This document shows positions 29,051 to 33,979 of a DNA stretch of 33,979 nucleotides, one piece after another. This stretch comes from Sphaerobacter sp. GTDB lineage: Bacteria; Chloroflexota; Chloroflexia; Thermomicrobiales; Thermomicrobiaceae. The stretch covers positions 1 through 33,979 of the forward strand of contig NZ_JADGHZ010000023.1 in the NCBI RefSeq assembly GCF_019683595.1, in the 5' to 3' direction. Every line of letters begins with the position of its first letter. Positions within the stretch are counted from its first letter, which is position 1. The notes beneath the pieces were generated by a model. It ran no database searches. It had not been told where the DNA came from and saw nothing but the letters and a program-made list of their open reading frames with translations. The position numbers were made by a program, and so were the translations under genes.

Positions 29051-29486
29051 CGTTGTCTTGTGCACCGCGAGGCGTCCTCGGGCGCGGCGCGTTCTCGTCT
29101 CATGCGCCCGACGGGCACGAGGAAAGGCTGATAAGCCGCGGTGACGCATATCATGCTTCCCTACTATGACCGCCTTGCGCACTCGATCGCATTCACAAAC
29201 TAGATCTGCACGGGCAGAATGAGCGCCAACAACTTGCTTATTGTGTCTCGCTCTCTTGCACTCGATGTCGGTGGTTCATCGAGATAGACGAGGCCGCATC
29301 TCGGTCTGAAGGGCGCCGATTGTCAAGCGTCCCGACTTGGACTGGTTGCCGTTTAGGTCGGGCGGTGGCTCCGGGTTTCACGCGTCGCCGGCGGGGGTGC
29401 CGGCACGTCTGGCCAGGGGTGATGAGGGCTTTTCTCCTGCCCGCACGACGGAGATGCGCCTCGGCGAGGGGAAAGGGGGATGCCTG
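29051..29486. other. 436-bp gap before the tannase-like gene
   Basis: No gene is seen. The middle part (about 29130-29290) is visibly AT-richer than its surroundings and probably holds promoter or regulatory DNA, but no clear -35/-10 pair stands out. Confidence 0.4.
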
Positions 29487-31223
29487 ATGCAAGACGCCGG
29501 AAGCGTAGCGCGGTCCGCTCCGCAGCGTGGGGCGTTGCGGCGGCTTCGCCAATCGGGCCGGCGCCGTCGTTCCTCGCTGCTGATGGCCGTCGTCCTCCTG
29601 CTTGCGGCGAGTATCTTCCCGAGCGTGGGCGGTGTCTCGGGTGTGCAGGCGCAGGGGATTGTCTGCGAGGATCTCGCGGGCATGACGATTCCCGCCGAGG
29701 AGATCGGCCTGCCCACGACCGGCGCGACCGTGCAGCAGGCCGTCGCCGTGGAGGCGACCGGCAGCCTGCCTCCGTACTGCCGCGTCGAAGGTATCATCAG
29801 CCCGGTCGATCCCACGGCGCCGAACATCCGGTTCCGCGTCAACCTCCCGGTTGAGTGGAACGGCTCGGCGATGCACTTCGGTGGGGGCGGCTACAACGGC
29901 ACCGTCGTCTCGGGGACCGGCGCTGCGCCCGGTGCACCGCCCGGCACGCCGGTACCGCTGGCGCGCGGCTTCGCCACCTTCGGCAGCGACTCCGGGCATG
30001 AAGGGGGCAATGCGAGCTTCGCGCTGAATGAAGAAGCGATGGTCAACTTCGGCTACGCCGCGCTGAAGAAGACGCGCGACGTCGCCGTGACAATCATCAC
30101 TGCTCACTACGGCCGCGGACCGGCCTACACCTACTTTGTCGGCAGTTCGCAGGGCGGTCGCGAGGCGGTCACCGTCGCCCAGCGGTTCCCCGAGGACTAC
30201 GACGGTGTCCTGAGTGTCGTGCCCGTCCTCAGCTTCACCGGCTTGCAGATCGCCGGCAACCGCATGGGCGCACCGCTGATCAACGGCGGCTGGATGAATT
30301 CCGCGAAGATCTCGTTGCTAGCCAACGCCGTGCGCGCGCTGTGCGACGGCCGCGACGGCCTCGTCGATGGCTTGGTCGCGAAGTACGCCGACTGCGAGGA
30401 CTTCGACCCGGCGGTGCTCCGCTGCCCGGACGGTACCGACGCCGGGGACCACTGCCTCTCCGACGCGCAGATCGCCGCCGTCCGTACCCTGCGGTCGCCG
30501 CTCGAGTTCGACTTCCCGCTGGCGAACGGCGTGACGGCCTATCCGGCATGGACGATCGGCAACGAAGACATGCCCGGCGGCTGGCCGCAATGGGTGATGG
30601 GCAGTGCTCCCCCGCCCGCGGTCCAGAACCCTGGTCCCAACCCCGGCGGTCCCGGGATCGTCAACTACGGGGCGCAGTTCGTCCGGTTCTTCATCGCCCA
30701 GGATCCGGCCTTCCAGACCTACGACTTCGACCACAACGACCCGCGGTGGCGCGAGCGGATCGAGCACGTCTCGGCGATCGTGGACGCGACCGATCCGGAC
30801 CTGTCCGCCTTCCACGCCCGGGGCGGCAAGCTGATCCTGGTCGAGTACCTGGGCGACCACGGGCGGAACCCGTGGGCCGGGATCCAGTACTACGAGAGCG
30901 TCGTCGAGACGCTGGGCAAGGGGCAGACGGACAAGTTCATGCGGCTCTACGTGTCCCCCGGCGCCGACCACGGCGGCAACAACGGCCCCTCTCGGGTCGA
31001 TTGGGTCTCGGTGCTCACGGACTGGGTTGAGCACGGGAAGGCACCGGGCGAGGATCTGGTGATGGTCCAGAGCCAGGGCGACACCGTGGTGCGGACGATG
31101 CCGGCCTGCCTCTATCCCAACTGGCCGCGGTACATGAAGGGCGACCCGTACGACGCGGCGAGCTTCACGTGCACGAAGGCGCCCGGGTTCCGCGGCTTCG
31201 GCGCCGGCAAGGGCAGCAACTAA
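29487..31223 (+). CDS. Secreted tannase/feruloyl-esterase family hydrolase
   Basis: This 578-residue esterase of the tannase/feruloyl-esterase family would hydrolyse esters of phenolic acids. The N-terminus has many arginines and a hydrophobic core (about residues 32-48, LLMAVVLLLAASIFP), then VQAQG, so it is a secreted protein with signal peptide. Family marks are CEDLAGMTIP, YCRVEGIISP, GGGGYNGTV, FATFGSDSGHEG and DVAVTIITAHYG. The nucleophile is Ser221 in GSSQGG, with Asp457 in LGDHGRNPW and His495 in GADHGGNN. Fungal and most bacterial relatives have Cys beside Ser and His (the CS-D-HC disulfide); here both are replaced (Ser220, Gly496). The ATG at 29487 has AAAGGGGGA 6 nt upstream. The real substrate is not known. 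Confidence 0.88.
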   Translation: MQDAGSVARSAPQRGALRRLRQSGRRRRSSLLMAVVLLLAASIFPSVGGVSGVQAQGIVCEDLAGMTIPAEEIGLPTTGATVQQAVAVEATGSLPPYCRVEGIISPVDPTAPNIRFRVNLPVEWNGSAMHFGGGGYNGTVVSGTGAAPGAPPGTPVPLARGFATFGSDSGHEGGNASFALNEEAMVNFGYAALKKTRDVAVTIITAHYGRGPAYTYFVGSSQGGREAVTVAQRFPEDYDGVLSVVPVLSFTGLQIAGNRMGAPLINGGWMNSAKISLLANAVRALCDGRDGLVDGLVAKYADCEDFDPAVLRCPDGTDAGDHCLSDAQIAAVRTLRSPLEFDFPLANGVTAYPAWTIGNEDMPGGWPQWVMGSAPPPAVQNPGPNPGGPGIVNYGAQFVRFFIAQDPAFQTYDFDHNDPRWRERIEHVSAIVDATDPDLSAFHARGGKLILVEYLGDHGRNPWAGIQYYESVVETLGKGQTDKFMRLYVSPGADHGGNNGPSRVDWVSVLTDWVEHGKAPGEDLVMVQSQGDTVVRTMPACLYPNWPRYMKGDPYDAASFTCTKAPGFRGFGAGKGSN

Positions 31224-31304
31224 CCCGAGACCGTGATGACGTGCCCTCGGCAGCGACGGGGTGAGCCCCGCCTGATGCGGCCCAGTGGCAAGTCTGGCCA
31301 GGAC

Positions 31305-31324
31305 CCCCCGGCGCCTGCCGGGGG
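31305..31324 (+). terminator. Terminator-like hairpin after the tannase gene
   Basis: CCCCCGG (31305-31311) pairs with CCGGGGG (31318-31324) around a 6-nt loop, followed by CGTGTTCTTCT. It is a short GC stem with a weak T-run. Confidence 0.6.
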
Positions 31325-31406
31325 CGTGTTCTTCTGGGGGCACCGAGGCATCGGGCGCGGCCTCTCGGGTGCGAGACGTCCCCCGAGCACACAGCGAGAA
31401 ATGCAA

Positions 31407-31432
31407 GCGGGAGGGCATATGCCCTCCCTCGC
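31407..31432. repeat. 26-bp palindrome, repeat family B, copy 1
   Basis: GCGGGAGGGCAT is followed by ATGCCCTCCCTCGC, an almost perfect palindrome. A sister copy, GGCGGGAGGGCAT with ATGCCC-type arms, lies at 33723-33748. The pair brackets the DUF488 operon. Confidence 0.7.
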
Positions 31433-31836
31433 TGGACTCTGACGCTTTCGGCTGGACACTACCCAGGGGAGACCTCCGGGTATATCGTGACCGGTTAGTC
31501 GCCCTGTCGTTAGCACGGGAGTTCCCGCGTGTTGTAGCTTGCCACCGAGCTGACACCTCTGGGGGACTGTTTCTGTCATCGCCCCTGGTACTGTTGGCCG
31601 CCCATCATCCCGTCCTCCGCCGGGAGCAGCGATTCCAGCACTGCGTCGCACTCGCTTATGGGTCCCACGGCGCCTCCATCCACCACACTCAGACACCAAG
31701 CGCCCTGTCATCCAACCGGAGGTGCCACAGTCCATTCCTGGGCGCCGAACCGCCCTGGTGTCGTCCATCCCTGCGATGTGCTTGGAGCACACCCCGTGCG
31801 TGCTCTGACTTGGAGGCTGTGCTCTTCAGCGCATCT
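31433..31836. other. 404-bp region without a recognisable gene
   Basis: ORFs exist on both strands (for example 31220-31792 minus and 31285-31875 plus), but they run through the repeat and terminator, lack ribosome-binding sites and match no family I know. Composition shifts toward lower GC to the right. It may be a decayed gene or the upstream regulatory region of the DUF488 operon. Confidence 0.4.
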
Positions 31837-31854
31837 CACGTATACTGGTACGTG
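31837..31854 (+). promoter_or_regulatory. Candidate -10 with overlapping operator palindrome
   Basis: TATACT (31841-31846) is overlapped by CACGTA (31837-31842) and TACGTG (31849-31854), a perfect 6-bp inverted repeat with a 6-nt spacer. It is placed 18 nt before the first DUF488 ATG. A -35 is weak or absent, so a dimeric regulator may act here. Confidence 0.45.
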
Positions 31855-31871
31855 CGCAACAGGAGTGATAG

Positions 31872-32366
31872 ATGAGTCAACCTACGATCTATACAATCGG
31901 ACACAGCAATCAGAGCGCGTCGGCACTGATTGCGCTTCTCCGTCGGCATCGAATTGAAGTGCTCATCGATGTCCGAAGCGCGCCCTATAGCCGTTACTCT
32001 CCTCACTTCAACCGCGAGGCGTTACAAGAAACGCTGAGCGACGCCGGCATACGATACCGTTTTGCTGGTGAGTACCTCGGTGGGCGTCCTACTGACCCCG
32101 GCTGCTACGACGAGCTCGGAAAGGTCGATTACCAGAAGATCGCGGAAAAGGCGTGGTATCAGGCTGGGATCGAGCGGGTGATCGAGTATGCGTCCACCGC
32201 GCGCACGGCCATCATGTGCAGCGAAGAGGATCCCAATCACTGTCACCGGCACAAGCTCATCGCACAGACCCTTCTGGGCCGGGGACTCACCGTGCTGCAT
32301 ATCCGCGGGGACGGGCGCATTGAGCCCGCACACCCGCTAGCCGTCCAGGCGAGGTTGTTTGGATGA
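31872..32366 (+). CDS. DUF488 family protein (first of two)
   Basis: This 164-residue protein belongs to DUF488, a widespread family of unknown biochemical function. It opens with the family signature IYTIGHSNQSASALIALLRRHRIEVLIDVRSAPYSRYSPHFN. It ends in C116-S-E-E-D-P-N-H-C124-H-R-H, the conserved CxE...CHR pattern. FAGEYLGGRPTDPGCYDELGKVDY is also typical. The ATG at 31872 follows AGGAG at 8 nt spacing. It overlaps the next gene by 4 bp (ATGA). Codons are less GC-biased than in the rest of the window, which suggests transfer. No function should be assumed. Confidence 0.9.
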   Translation: MSQPTIYTIGHSNQSASALIALLRRHRIEVLIDVRSAPYSRYSPHFNREALQETLSDAGIRYRFAGEYLGGRPTDPGCYDELGKVDYQKIAEKAWYQAGIERVIEYASTARTAIMCSEEDPNHCHRHKLIAQTLLGRGLTVLHIRGDGRIEPAHPLAVQARLFG

Positions 32367-32818
32367 CGACTGAGACCGTGCCGCTATATACGATCGGATT
32401 CACCCGACGGAGCGCCGAATCGTTTTTCGAGACGCTCCGCGAGCATGGCGTGGCTCGTCTCATCGACGTGCGAGCCAACAACACCTCCCAGTTGGCTGGA
32501 TTTTCCAAGCGGGACGACCTTATTTACTTCCTCCGTCTGATCCTGGGTGCTGAGTACCATCACCTTGAAATCCTGGCTCCAACGCCAGAGATCCGAGCGA
32601 CGATGAAACCTGGCGGTGGTGGATGGGCGGCGTACGAGCCTCGGTTCCTGTCGCTGCTGGATGAGCGCCGGATCCTTGACCACCTCTCCCGATCGTTCTT
32701 CACGGACAAGATCTGTTGCCTGCTATGCAGCGAGGCGACCCCTGAGCACTGTCATCGCCGCCTGGTCGCTGAGTACCTGCAACGCGCATGGCCTGAACTT
32801 CGAGTCGTGCACCTATAG
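32363..32818 (+). CDS. DUF488 family protein (second of two)
   Basis: This 151-residue second DUF488 member is translationally coupled to the first. It shares LYTIGFTRRSAESFFETLREHGVARLIDVRANNTSQLAGFSKRDDL and the C-terminal C122-S-E-A-T-P-E-H-C130-H-R-R. It differs clearly from its neighbour in the middle (EYHHLEILAPTPEIRATMK, GGGGWAAYEPRFLSLL), so these are diverged paralogues rather than a recent duplication. The start is within the ATGA overlap at 32363. Side-by-side pairing suggests the two act together, perhaps as a heterodimer; this is inference. Confidence 0.9.
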   Translation: MTTETVPLYTIGFTRRSAESFFETLREHGVARLIDVRANNTSQLAGFSKRDDLIYFLRLILGAEYHHLEILAPTPEIRATMKPGGGGWAAYEPRFLSLLDERRILDHLSRSFFTDKICCLLCSEATPEHCHRRLVAEYLQRAWPELRVVHL

Positions 32819-32889
32819 GCACCGCGGCATTGGCATTTCTGTCAATGTCGCTCGCAACGAATCGCCCGCTATCGTGGGAGGGGAGGTCT

Positions 32890-33654
32890 ATGCGCGAGCG
32901 GCTGATTGTCACCGATGTGGCGGCGATGGACTCCGGCGTCTGTATCGCGGGCTACGTGGGAGCGCGGTCCACACGACCAGTGTTGCCGGAAGGCGGTGGA
33001 ATTCCTTGGGCGTACCTTCGTGACGAGTCGGGGAACTTCGTTGAACCTCTGACGGAGGTGGAAATCAACCTCCTTAAGCACACCCCTCGCCCACCGCATA
33101 CCGAGGATCGGCTGATCGACGGCACCGGACGGATCCGCATCGTTCGGCGTCTACCAGAACCTGAGGCGCAATCCTTCCTTCGACGGGTGTGCCGTGGTTC
33201 CGTCACCGATCTCTTTGGTGCAGAAATCGTCGATCGACGTTACATCCTGCCTGGGCAAGGACATTCCTCACTGGGTACGCTACGTGTGTCGAGGATCACC
33301 TGGCTCGATCTCGACCGGGACGAGGATCGTGGCCGCGATCAGTTCACACTCGGCTTTGCCGATTCGACCGGAATGAGTTATCGCCTGCGCGTTACCGACG
33401 TGGCATTTCGCGAGCACTGTCGTCGTACTTGGGAGCGCACGAGCGGCCGTCGCGATCTCGCAGCGATTCGCGTACGAGAGCGGTTGAACGATGCGGAGGA
33501 GATCTTCCTGCGGATTGGCTTGAGTCGGCCGTTTGAGCCAGGCCCCGGCGTCGGCCGTCGCTGCTATCTGATGGTCACCGGTGTCTACACGTTTCCAAGC
33601 TATTTGGACGCACCGTGGGCTGAGTACTACGCGGCGTTGAGCGAATTGGGCTGA
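32890..33654 (+). CDS. DUF488-linked protein, possibly dual-OB domain
   Basis: This 254-residue protein has no catalytic motif that I recognise and no signal or membrane segment. It opens MRERLIVTDVAAMDSGVCIAGYV. The region 20-130 contains GIPWAYLRDESGNFVEPLTEVEI and FLRRVCRGSVTDLFG; the region 130-250 contains GTLRVSRITWLDLD, LGFADSTGMSYRLRVTDVAFREHC, EIFLRIGLSRPF and CYLMVTGVYTFP, all rich in short beta-strand-like segments. Proteins annotated as dual OB-domain have this kind of sequence and occur beside DUF488, but I place it there from memory only. The ATG at 32890 follows GGGAGG; it lies 71 bp after DUF488-2 and is probably in the same operon. Confidence 0.65.
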   Translation: MRERLIVTDVAAMDSGVCIAGYVGARSTRPVLPEGGGIPWAYLRDESGNFVEPLTEVEINLLKHTPRPPHTEDRLIDGTGRIRIVRRLPEPEAQSFLRRVCRGSVTDLFGAEIVDRRYILPGQGHSSLGTLRVSRITWLDLDRDEDRGRDQFTLGFADSTGMSYRLRVTDVAFREHCRRTWERTSGRRDLAAIRVRERLNDAEEIFLRIGLSRPFEPGPGVGRRCYLMVTGVYTFPSYLDAPWAEYYAALSELG

Positions 33655-33722: not shown

Positions 33723-33748
33723 GGCGGGAGGGCATGTGCCCTCCCGCC
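33723..33748. terminator. 26-bp palindrome, repeat family B, copy 2
   Basis: GGCGGGAGGGCAT is followed by GTGCCCTCCCGCC, a palindrome with only the central pair mismatched. It lies between the convergent OB-like gene and the superoxide dismutase gene and could terminate both. It is related to 31407-31432. Confidence 0.7.
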
Positions 33749-33771: not shown

Positions 33772-33979
33772 CTAGCGCTTCGCGGTGGCGAAGCGCTTGG
33801 CGACCTCGTCCCAGTTGACCACGTTCCACCAGGCCTCGACGTAGGCCGGGCGGCGGTACTGGTACTTGAGGTAGTAGGCATGCTCCCAGACGTCCAGGCC
33901 CATGATCGGGTAGAGGCCGTCCATCAGGGGGCTGTCCTGGTTCGCCGTGCTCATGACCTCGAGCTTGCCGTTGCGCCAC
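33772..33979 (-). CDS. Fe/Mn superoxide dismutase, C-terminal part (5' end outside window)
   Basis: The visible 68 residues are the C-terminal end of an iron/manganese superoxide dismutase, which converts superoxide to O2 and H2O2. [37 protein letters not shown] includes the last two metal ligands, Asp and His of DVWEHAYY, followed by [12 protein letters not shown]. The stop is at 33772-33774. The start lies beyond base 33979, and metal preference cannot be judged from this part. Confidence 0.93.

What the first reader, a model, noticed from the sequence alone, without database searches (positions are those of the whole stretch)
31872..33654. DUF488-DUF488-OB-like operon, probable mobile accessory module
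Two diverged DUF488 genes overlap by 4 bp and are followed by a possible dual-OB protein. Codon choice is clearly less GC-biased than in neighbours, and the module is bracketed by two copies of the same 26-bp palindrome (31407 and 33723). Paired DUF488 plus a nucleic-acid-binding-type fold suggests a nucleotide or nucleic-acid-directed system, perhaps defence or repair, of unknown mechanism.
Basis: partly seen in the sequence, partly recalled or inferred. Interest (0 to 1): 0.7.

Follow-up and report, generated by a model that had tools for sequence, protein, structure and literature searches.

The report
DUF488 pair plus tandem-OB DNA-binding trio
Three neighbouring genes, two related enzymes that look like cysteine phosphatases and a protein that looks like a DNA binder, form an old unit that moves between bacteria; gene neighbourhoods suggest that it processes damaged or foreign DNA, but nobody seems to have tested it and it is already listed as a candidate defence system.

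Summary
The trio is real: two DUF488 genes overlapping by 4 bp (D1, D2) and a dual-OB (DuOB) gene. It is not a new kind of system: PADLOC lists it as the untested candidate PDC-M45, and Pfam names the families. Among the best 80 D2 loci found in a collection of 84,980 species genomes, D1 and DuOB accompany D2 in 66. The three proteins diverge together (Mantel r 0.72-0.76). Natural fusions join DuOB to D1, D1 to D2, and DuOB to RecQ helicases. The mobile reading is partly right. The Sphaerobacter-like genus keeps the trio at one site, but alleles have been swapped: two relatives share D1-D2 at 99-100% where flanks are 57-93%, and the window's trio is 71-83% identical to a relative whose flanks are mostly 83-97%. 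The two palindromes are recurrent hairpins, not module ends; copy 1 belongs to a neighbouring tannase insert. New context: lone D2 homologues on plasmids sit beside uvrA or uvrB in formaldehyde-tolerance islands (7 of 12 regions read). I favour a DNA end- or lesion-processing module, with cysteine enzymes guided by a tandem-OB DNA binder, used in repair and sometimes in defence islands. No step of the chemistry has been shown.

The parts
31872..32366 (+). D1: DUF488 enzyme, 164 aa, PDC-M45B-like; motif CSEEDPNHCHR
   Evidence: PF04343 3.6e-24; PDC-M45B 6.1e-56; Cys116, Glu118, Cys124-His125-Arg126 invariant in 52 rows; dN/dS 0.11 against G001
32363..32818 (+). D2: DUF488 enzyme, 151 aa, PDC-M45C-like; motif CSEATPEHCHRR
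   Evidence: PF04343 1.6e-21 and DUF488-N3a 34.7 bits over a cut-off of 27; PDC-M45C 2.3e-56; Cys122-Ser123-Glu124 and Cys130-His131-Arg132-Arg133 invariant in 56 rows; model pLDDT 93.1
32890..33654 (+). DuOB: tandem OB-fold protein, 254 aa, presumed DNA binder
   Evidence: PF22557 6.2e-16; model pLDDT 93.9, pTM 0.91, best matches are DNA-binding multi-OB proteins; weak PDC-M45A 0.0034; dN/dS 0.15
31855..31871 (+). left limit of the block shared with G001 and G002; 5' leader of D1
   Evidence: blastn block begins at 31855 in both comparisons
29051..31855 (+). stretch absent from G001 and G002, holding the tannase gene (29337-31223, +) and palindrome copy 1; not part of the trio
   Evidence: PF07519 3.2e-120
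31409..31428 (.). palindrome copy 1 (perfect 20 bp), terminator-like hairpin in the tannase stretch
33723..33748 (.). palindrome copy 2, hairpin between DuOB and the convergent superoxide dismutase gene; a hairpin of the same stem stands there in G001 and G002
33772..33979 (-). C-terminal part of Fe/Mn superoxide dismutase gene, right flank
   Evidence: PF02777 4.9e-26

Best explanation
The locus is a D1-D2-DuOB module that processes DNA ends or lesions. Inferred mechanism: DuOB, two OB folds in tandem like RPA or LEF-3, holds single-stranded or distorted DNA exposed by a helicase (RecQ in some lineages) or by excision repair (UvrA/UvrB in the plasmid islands). D1 and D2, paired cysteine enzymes of a phosphatase-like Rossmannoid fold with an invariant C-[SA]-E-(x)5-C-H-R active loop, then remove or transfer a group at the sugar-phosphate end or adduct. 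Shown here: the families, the conserved motif, the predicted folds, the tight three-gene linkage with fusions, the co-divergence, the horizontal exchange and the repair and defence neighbours. Inferred: a physical complex, DNA as substrate, the chemistry, and use in repair first with phage defence as a second use.
For: Linkage: 65 of 80 D2-anchored loci have D1 and DuOB beside D2, and one more (L094) has DuOB fused to D1 (fusion by Pfam). Among Chloroflexota, 26 of the 30 loci held for 37 positive genomes have both partners. Nine of the 11 DuOB genes found in 61 relatives sit with D1 and D2. Order varies (DuOB upstream, downstream or divergent) while linkage is kept. Co-divergence: Mantel r 0.76, 0.72 and 0.72 over 59 loci, best of 1000 permutations 0.21. 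Fusions: D1-D2 in L107; DuOB with RecQ in L035, L041, L060, L083 and L095 (Pfam for L041, L060 and L083). Repair context: lone D2 next to uvrA or uvrB in 7 of 12 plasmid regions read, all 7 with a formaldehyde gene or regulator in view. Structure: tandem-OB matches to LEF-3 (Z 7.0), RPA70 (Z 5.5) and HIN-200; D2 matches to dual-specificity/PTP phosphatases and diphthine-synthase-type methylases (Z 6.4-7.8). Purifying selection: dN/dS 0.10-0.15 between window and G001.
Against: No activity is shown, and no PDB chain of D1, D2 or DuOB kind was found by sequence. Structural Z values are under 8, which the tool calls middling, and Foldseek gave no D2 match at E <= 0.001. Repair and defence neighbours are a minority: RecQ in 6 of 87 loci and BREX in 5 of 87; most neighbours are ordinary and variable. 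UvrA/UvrB neighbours go with lone D2, not with the full trio, so that context may be a special use. The 80 loci are the best of at least 574, so they lean towards close kin of D2. RNA as substrate is not excluded (RtcB lies next to the pair in L065 and L069).
Confidence: 0.5

Rival explanations
1. The trio is first of all an anti-phage defence system (PDC-M45): DuOB senses phage DNA and D1/D2 are effectors that damage phage DNA or a nucleotide pool.
For: PADLOC models PDC-M45B and PDC-M45C match D1 and D2 at 6e-56 and 2e-56. A paper says such candidates came from a guilt-by-embedding search and are mostly unvalidated (PMC12988326, passages seen). PglZ and BrxL of BREX lie by the trio in 5 of 87 loci, of which L071 and L108 look like near-copies. 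One plasmid trio lies in a type III CRISPR locus and one next to a CBASS cyclase. Patchy and horizontal distribution.
Against: PADLOC hits were not clearly enriched near the trio: 248 model families among 102 near genes against 110 among 102 far genes, a count swollen by overlapping models. Lone D2 sits with uvrA/uvrB and formaldehyde genes. No phage test of the trio was found in the library.
Confidence: 0.3
2. The trio acts on RNA or on free nucleotide/NAD-derived molecules, for instance removing terminal phosphates from ribose, with DuOB as an RNA-binding part.
For: DUF4326, which stands beside D2 where D1 would be in DuOB-D2-DUF4326 plasmid loci, is proposed to process terminal phosphates of ADP-ribose products (PMC9503650, passage seen). 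RtcB lies next to the pair in 2 of 80 loci. OB folds also bind RNA (general knowledge).
Against: Fusions are to RecQ DNA helicases and lone D2 neighbours are excision-repair genes. The structural matches are chiefly to DNA-binding OB proteins.
Confidence: 0.15
3. The palindromes bound a discrete mobile element that carried the trio into this genome.
For: Two copies of a similar palindrome flank the trio in the window; GC3 is lower than in neighbours.
Against: The trio holds the same site in G001 and, less DuOB, in G002; copy 1 lies in the tannase stretch that both lack; copy 2 has a counterpart in both; the stem recurs at 6 places in the genome.
Confidence: 0.03

Closest known systems
PADLOC PDC-M45 (phage defence candidate, models M45A, M45B, M45C)
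   Same: Same components: D1 = M45B, D2 = M45C. M45A is the DuOB component: M45A models match 2 of the 102 near-neighbour proteins scanned, and 2 of the 102 carry DuOB by Pfam.
   Different: The window's DuOB belongs to a second branch (OB1 type) that the M45A models barely see (0.0034).
Pfam DuOB PF22557 and DUF488 PF04343 / DUF488-N3a PF22751
   Same: All three proteins pass the curated DUF488 or DuOB cut-off; D2 also passes DUF488-N3a.
   Different: D1 does not reach the DUF488-N3a cut-off (17.4 against 27 bits).
Tandem-OB DNA-binding proteins (RPA70, baculovirus LEF-3, HIN-200 DNA sensors)
   Same: Two OB folds in one chain in the model; best structural matches.
   Different: No convincing sequence relation in the PDB; Z 7.0 or less; binding untested.
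PTP/dual-specificity phosphatases and rhodanese-like superfamily; diphthine-synthase-type methylases
   Same: The D2 model aligns over 103-124 residues with Z 6.4-7.8. From recall, a 2023 classification (10.1093/nargab/lqad029, not held) joins DUF488, DUF4326 and RapZ-C in one clade and predicts DNA-end processing.
   Different: The loop is C-[SA]-E-(x)5-C-H-R rather than the classical CX5R (classical motif recalled); no activity known.
Plasmid formaldehyde-tolerance islands with uvrA, uvrB, frmR and a lone DUF488
   Same: Their DUF488 is a D2 homologue (about 50% identical) with the same invariant residues.
   Different: No D1 and no DuOB beside it.

Membership tests
PADLOC PDC-M45 | M45B component | tested here: met
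   D1 6.1e-56
PADLOC PDC-M45 | M45C component | tested here: met
   D2 2.3e-56
PADLOC PDC-M45 | M45A component | tested here: inconclusive
   M45A models 0.0034 and 0.015 only, but the Pfam DuOB family is met at 6.2e-16
PADLOC PDC-M45 | components adjacent in one locus | tested here: met
   D1 and D2 overlap by 4 bp, DuOB starts 71 bp downstream
PADLOC PDC-M45 | anti-phage activity | not testable with these tools
   needs a phage assay; the name PDC-M45 was in 0 papers of the library
Pfam DUF488 (PF04343) | score over curated cut-off | tested here: met
   86.2 and 77.6 bits against 22.2
Pfam DUF488-N3a (PF22751), D2 | score over curated cut-off | tested here: met
   34.7 bits against 27
Pfam DUF488-N3a (PF22751), D1 | score over curated cut-off | tested here: not met
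   17.4 bits against 27
Pfam DuOB (PF22557) | score over curated cut-off | tested here: met
   59.5 bits against 27
Rhodanese-phosphatase superfamily | Rossmannoid PTP/rhodanese fold with active cysteine loop | tested here: inconclusive
   D2 model matches PTP folds at Z 6.4-7.7, below 8; cysteines invariant in 56 rows
Tandem-OB single-strand DNA-binding proteins | two OB folds | tested here: inconclusive
   Pfam DuOB met; model pLDDT 93.9, matches span residues 1-237, Z 7.0 or less
Tandem-OB single-strand DNA-binding proteins | binds DNA | not testable with these tools
   needs a binding assay
Autonomous mobile element | own integrase or transposase and defined ends | tested here: not met
   only tannase, trio and SOD among the genes scanned from 29.0 to 33.98 kb; palindromes are not ends

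The most novel reading that the evidence does not exclude
D1-D2-DuOB is an undescribed DNA-damage pathway: a cysteine-based two-enzyme machine that clears a blocked DNA end or a formaldehyde-type adduct or crosslink after RecQ unwinding or UvrAB action. D2 is the working core (it can stand alone beside uvrA/uvrB), and the listing as a phage-defence candidate reflects a second use of the same chemistry against phage DNA.
Probability: 0.28. Interest if true: 0.8.

Novelty: new member of a known kind. Interest (0 to 1): 0.5.

Why it matters
A three-gene unit found in archaea, cyanobacteria, Chloroflexota, Proteobacteria and others (with D2 alone on Enterobacteriaceae plasmids) has no tested function that I could find. 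The lone D2 beside uvrA/uvrB in formaldehyde islands, the RecQ fusions and the swap of D1 for DUF4326 turn a vague defence candidate into a testable proposal about DNA lesions, which can be put to laboratory E. coli with two cysteine mutants. If right, it would add a class of DNA-processing enzymes and link repair to mobile defence islands.

Tried and rejected
Palindromes as module ends: rejected. Trio as a recent insertion at this site: rejected, since the site is shared in the genus and it is the tannase stretch that is extra; what moves is the allele.

Defence enrichment by PADLOC of 102 near against 102 far neighbour genes: inconclusive; the tool shows only 25 families, models overlap, and defence islands are longer than the distance used. 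Of 123 near genes listed the first 102 were given; of 135 far genes 123 were sampled and the first 102 given, to stay under the residue limit. So the last loci of the list are under-represented in both.

Single window proteins were folded instead. No complex was predicted.

Sequence search of the PDB with the three profiles found no convincing relative. NCBIfam: nothing for the three proteins at E <= 1. tRNA in the window: none. Sigma-70 promoter scan of 31.2-33.98 kb: none found. Phages: only seven Gordonia records with a 30% match to D2.

Literature: searches for DUF488 (25 papers), PDC-M45 (0), DuOB (7 that look unrelated) and the word sets showed no experimental study of the trio. The classification paper I recall (10.1093/nargab/lqad029) is not held, so what I say of it is recall. 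Passages only were seen of PMC9503650, PMC7824862, PMC12988326, PMC11514479, PMC9674854 and PMC12704722; of other papers only search listings.

D2 tree: few columns (144 for 95 rows), so many forks are unresolved; that lone D2s arose more than once is not shown.

Rows dropped: in the 59-locus comparison, loci of L027-L105 without all three proteins or with short DuOB or D1 frames were left out. L083 gave no D2 frame in my calling and counts as 'noD2' among the 80.
Full report
What is there. The window is contig C239 of a 3.89-Mb genome. D1 (31872-32366) and D2 (32363-32818) overlap by 4 bp; DuOB follows at 32890-33654. Pfam gives DUF488 for D1 and D2 and DuOB for the third; D2 also passes DUF488-N3a. 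PADLOC's candidate system PDC-M45 has its B and C models in D1 and D2 at 6e-56 and 2e-56; the A model barely sees the third protein. NCBIfam gave nothing.

The site. In G001 and G002 the block from D1 on begins right after the gene that ends near 29051. The 2.8 kb from 29051 to 31855, with a tannase gene and palindrome copy 1, is missing in both. So the tannase stretch is the extra piece here. G001 has the whole trio before the same superoxide dismutase gene. G002 has D1 and D2 but only a remnant of DuOB. The hairpin next to the dismutase gene has a counterpart in G001 and G002, and the same stem is found at 6 places of the genome, with none for the reversed control. The palindromes are therefore recurrent hairpins, probably terminators (inference).

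Mobility. Between G001 and G002 a block of about 1.3 kb with the D1 leader, D1 and D2 is 99-100% identical, while flanking 150-column steps range from 57 to 93%. Between the window and G001 the left flank is 83-97% (one last step 76%), the dismutase end 96-97%, but the trio only 71-83%, and the spacer after it 62%. GC3 of the window's trio (0.65-0.68) is below that of its neighbours (0.88-0.99) and below that of G001's trio (0.77-0.89); dN/dS between window and G001 is 0.10-0.15. The simplest reading is replacement of alleles at a fixed site by horizontal exchange, with function kept. One caution: G002 is a metagenome bin, so a chimaeric contig is possible, though both flanks lie on the same contig. 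D2 of the strong kind is in 3 of 3 genomes of the genus, 0 of 18 others of the family, and 17 of 61 relatives in all. DuOB is in 11 of 61. D2 is in 37 of 400 Chloroflexota genomes.

Conservation of the unit. In these 80, D1 and a DuOB gene stand next to D2 in 65; one more has DuOB fused to D1 (L094, Pfam); five have D1 but no DuOB that I could call (L026 is G002; L045, L049 and L059 are at contig ends; L070 is open); eight have D2 alone; one (L083) gave no D2 frame. Of 30 Chloroflexota loci held, 26 have both partners, one has DuOB at a contig edge, three look alone within 1.5 kb; of 17 loci in relatives, 13 have both. In the viral collection 7 loci were found, of which 5 have all three as separate genes, L107 has D1-D2 fused plus DuOB, and L111 has D2 and DuOB. 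DuOB comes in two types. One stands mostly after D2 (or divergent from D1), the other mostly before D1; on a D1-D2 tree the type changes only twice. All 25 proteins of the second-type set that were scanned pass DuOB. Distances of D1, D2 and DuOB over 59 loci are strongly correlated (0.76, 0.72, 0.72; best permutation 0.21), and phyla are mixed on the tree (22 changes where 15 is least; shuffled mean 36). This correlation includes shared species history, which I could not remove.

Fusions and swaps. DuOB is joined to RecQ helicases in L041, L060 and L095 (RecQ first) and in L083 and L035 (DuOB first); L090 has a separate RecQ after the trio (Pfam domains for L041, L060 and L083). So RecQ is near in 6 of 87 loci. 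On two plasmids D2 is followed by DUF4326 where D1 would be expected: L179 reads DuOB-D2-DUF4326; L180 has a split D2 next to DUF4326, with a DuOB gene elsewhere on the 8.2-kb plasmid. [quoted passage not shown]

Neighbours. PglZ and BrxL of BREX are by the trio in L040, L061, L071, L108 and L109 (5 of 87, L071 and L108 near-copies). A trio lies by a CBASS cyclase on an Agrobacterium plasmid and in a type III CRISPR locus on an Allochromatium plasmid. D2 was found on 135 of 72,556 plasmid records, 83 of them typed as conjugative. I read 12 plasmid regions. In 7 a lone D2 stands beside uvrA or uvrB, with formaldehyde genes or a formaldehyde regulator in view (in the last the D2 gene is cut by an IS5). 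Of the other five, two hold trios, two hold D2-DUF4326 with DuOB and one holds a lone D2 with a formaldehyde-type repressor nearby. Two Pseudomonas contigs hold the same kind of D2 with fghA, one of them with uvrB. Seven of these lone D2s form one supported group; the Acinetobacter one falls elsewhere, but the tree is weak. Most other neighbours of the 80 loci are ordinary and differ from locus to locus; the PADLOC near/far comparison was inconclusive.

Structure and motif. D2 keeps Cys122-Ser123-Glu124 and Cys130-His131-Arg132-Arg133 with Asp35, Arg37, Tyr65 and His150 in all 56 rows, a lone plasmid D2 (L113) included. D1 keeps Cys116, Glu118, Pro121 and Cys124-His125-Arg126 in all 52 rows. 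So both look active. The D2 model (pLDDT 93.1) matches CbiL/diphthine-synthase-type methylases and PTP or dual-specificity phosphatases (Z 6.4-7.8; no Foldseek match at E <= 0.001). The DuOB model (pLDDT 93.9) matches multi-OB DNA-binding proteins: HIN-200, CST, RPA and POT1 by Foldseek, and LEF-3 (Z 7.0) and RPA70 (Z 5.5) by VIA-align. These Z values are middling and support only the fold.

How it most likely works. DNA is held by DuOB at a site opened by a helicase or by excision repair, and the two cysteine enzymes process an end or adduct there. The DNA link rests on fusions and neighbours, the enzyme link on the conserved loop and fold, the complex on linkage, fusions and co-divergence. 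Whether the main use is repair or defence cannot be settled here; I put repair-type DNA processing somewhat ahead because an enzyme of the trio is repeatedly found alone in uvrA/uvrB-formaldehyde islands.

Compared with what is known. The unit is a member, or a near member with a divergent DuOB, of PDC-M45. PDCs are said to come from a guilt-by-embedding search and to be mostly unvalidated (PMC12988326, passages). What I did not find in print in the library is the link of lone D2 with uvrA/uvrB-formaldehyde islands, the RecQ-DuOB fusions or the DUF4326 swap; some of this may be in the 2023 classification paper that I could not read.

Noticed in passing
window 29051-31855: A 2.8-kb stretch with a tannase/feruloyl esterase gene (29337-31223) is absent from both genus relatives; its ends were not examined for repeats.
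   Followed up: partly
L018 7040-7420 (G002): DuOB is deleted down to a C-terminal remnant while D1 and D2 are intact and 99-100% identical to G001's, in flanks of 57-93% identity: a recent exchange plus loss of the third gene.
   Followed up: yes
L113, L115, L176-L178, L182, L184: Lone D2-type DUF488 next to uvrA or uvrB in formaldehyde-tolerance islands of plasmids (IncC, IncHI2, IncF, IncP and others); this may be a separate finding worth its own study.
   Followed up: partly
L179 5350-7013; L180 132-698 and 4760-5820: D2 followed by DUF4326 in the place of D1 on small plasmids; L179 has DuOB directly upstream, in L180 DuOB lies apart and D2 is split.
   Followed up: partly
L097 3214-4836: DuOB reads in frame into a dihydrodipicolinate reductase (DapB) in a Chthonomonas-like bin; real fusion or sequencing error unknown.
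   Followed up: no
L157 1936-3432: DuOB frame runs on into NHL/PQQ-repeat-like sequence to the end of the held stretch.
   Followed up: no
L065 7567-9006 and L069 3618-5054: RtcB RNA ligase gene next to the D1-D2 pair on the opposite strand in two closely similar cyanobacterial loci.
   Followed up: no
G000:C159:11535-11936: A further, more distant DUF488 gene elsewhere in the genome; G001 and G002 also have a third DUF488 match.
   Followed up: no
L181 528-7631: A trio sits between cas1/csx16 and csm6 genes of a type III CRISPR region on an Allochromatium plasmid.
   Followed up: no
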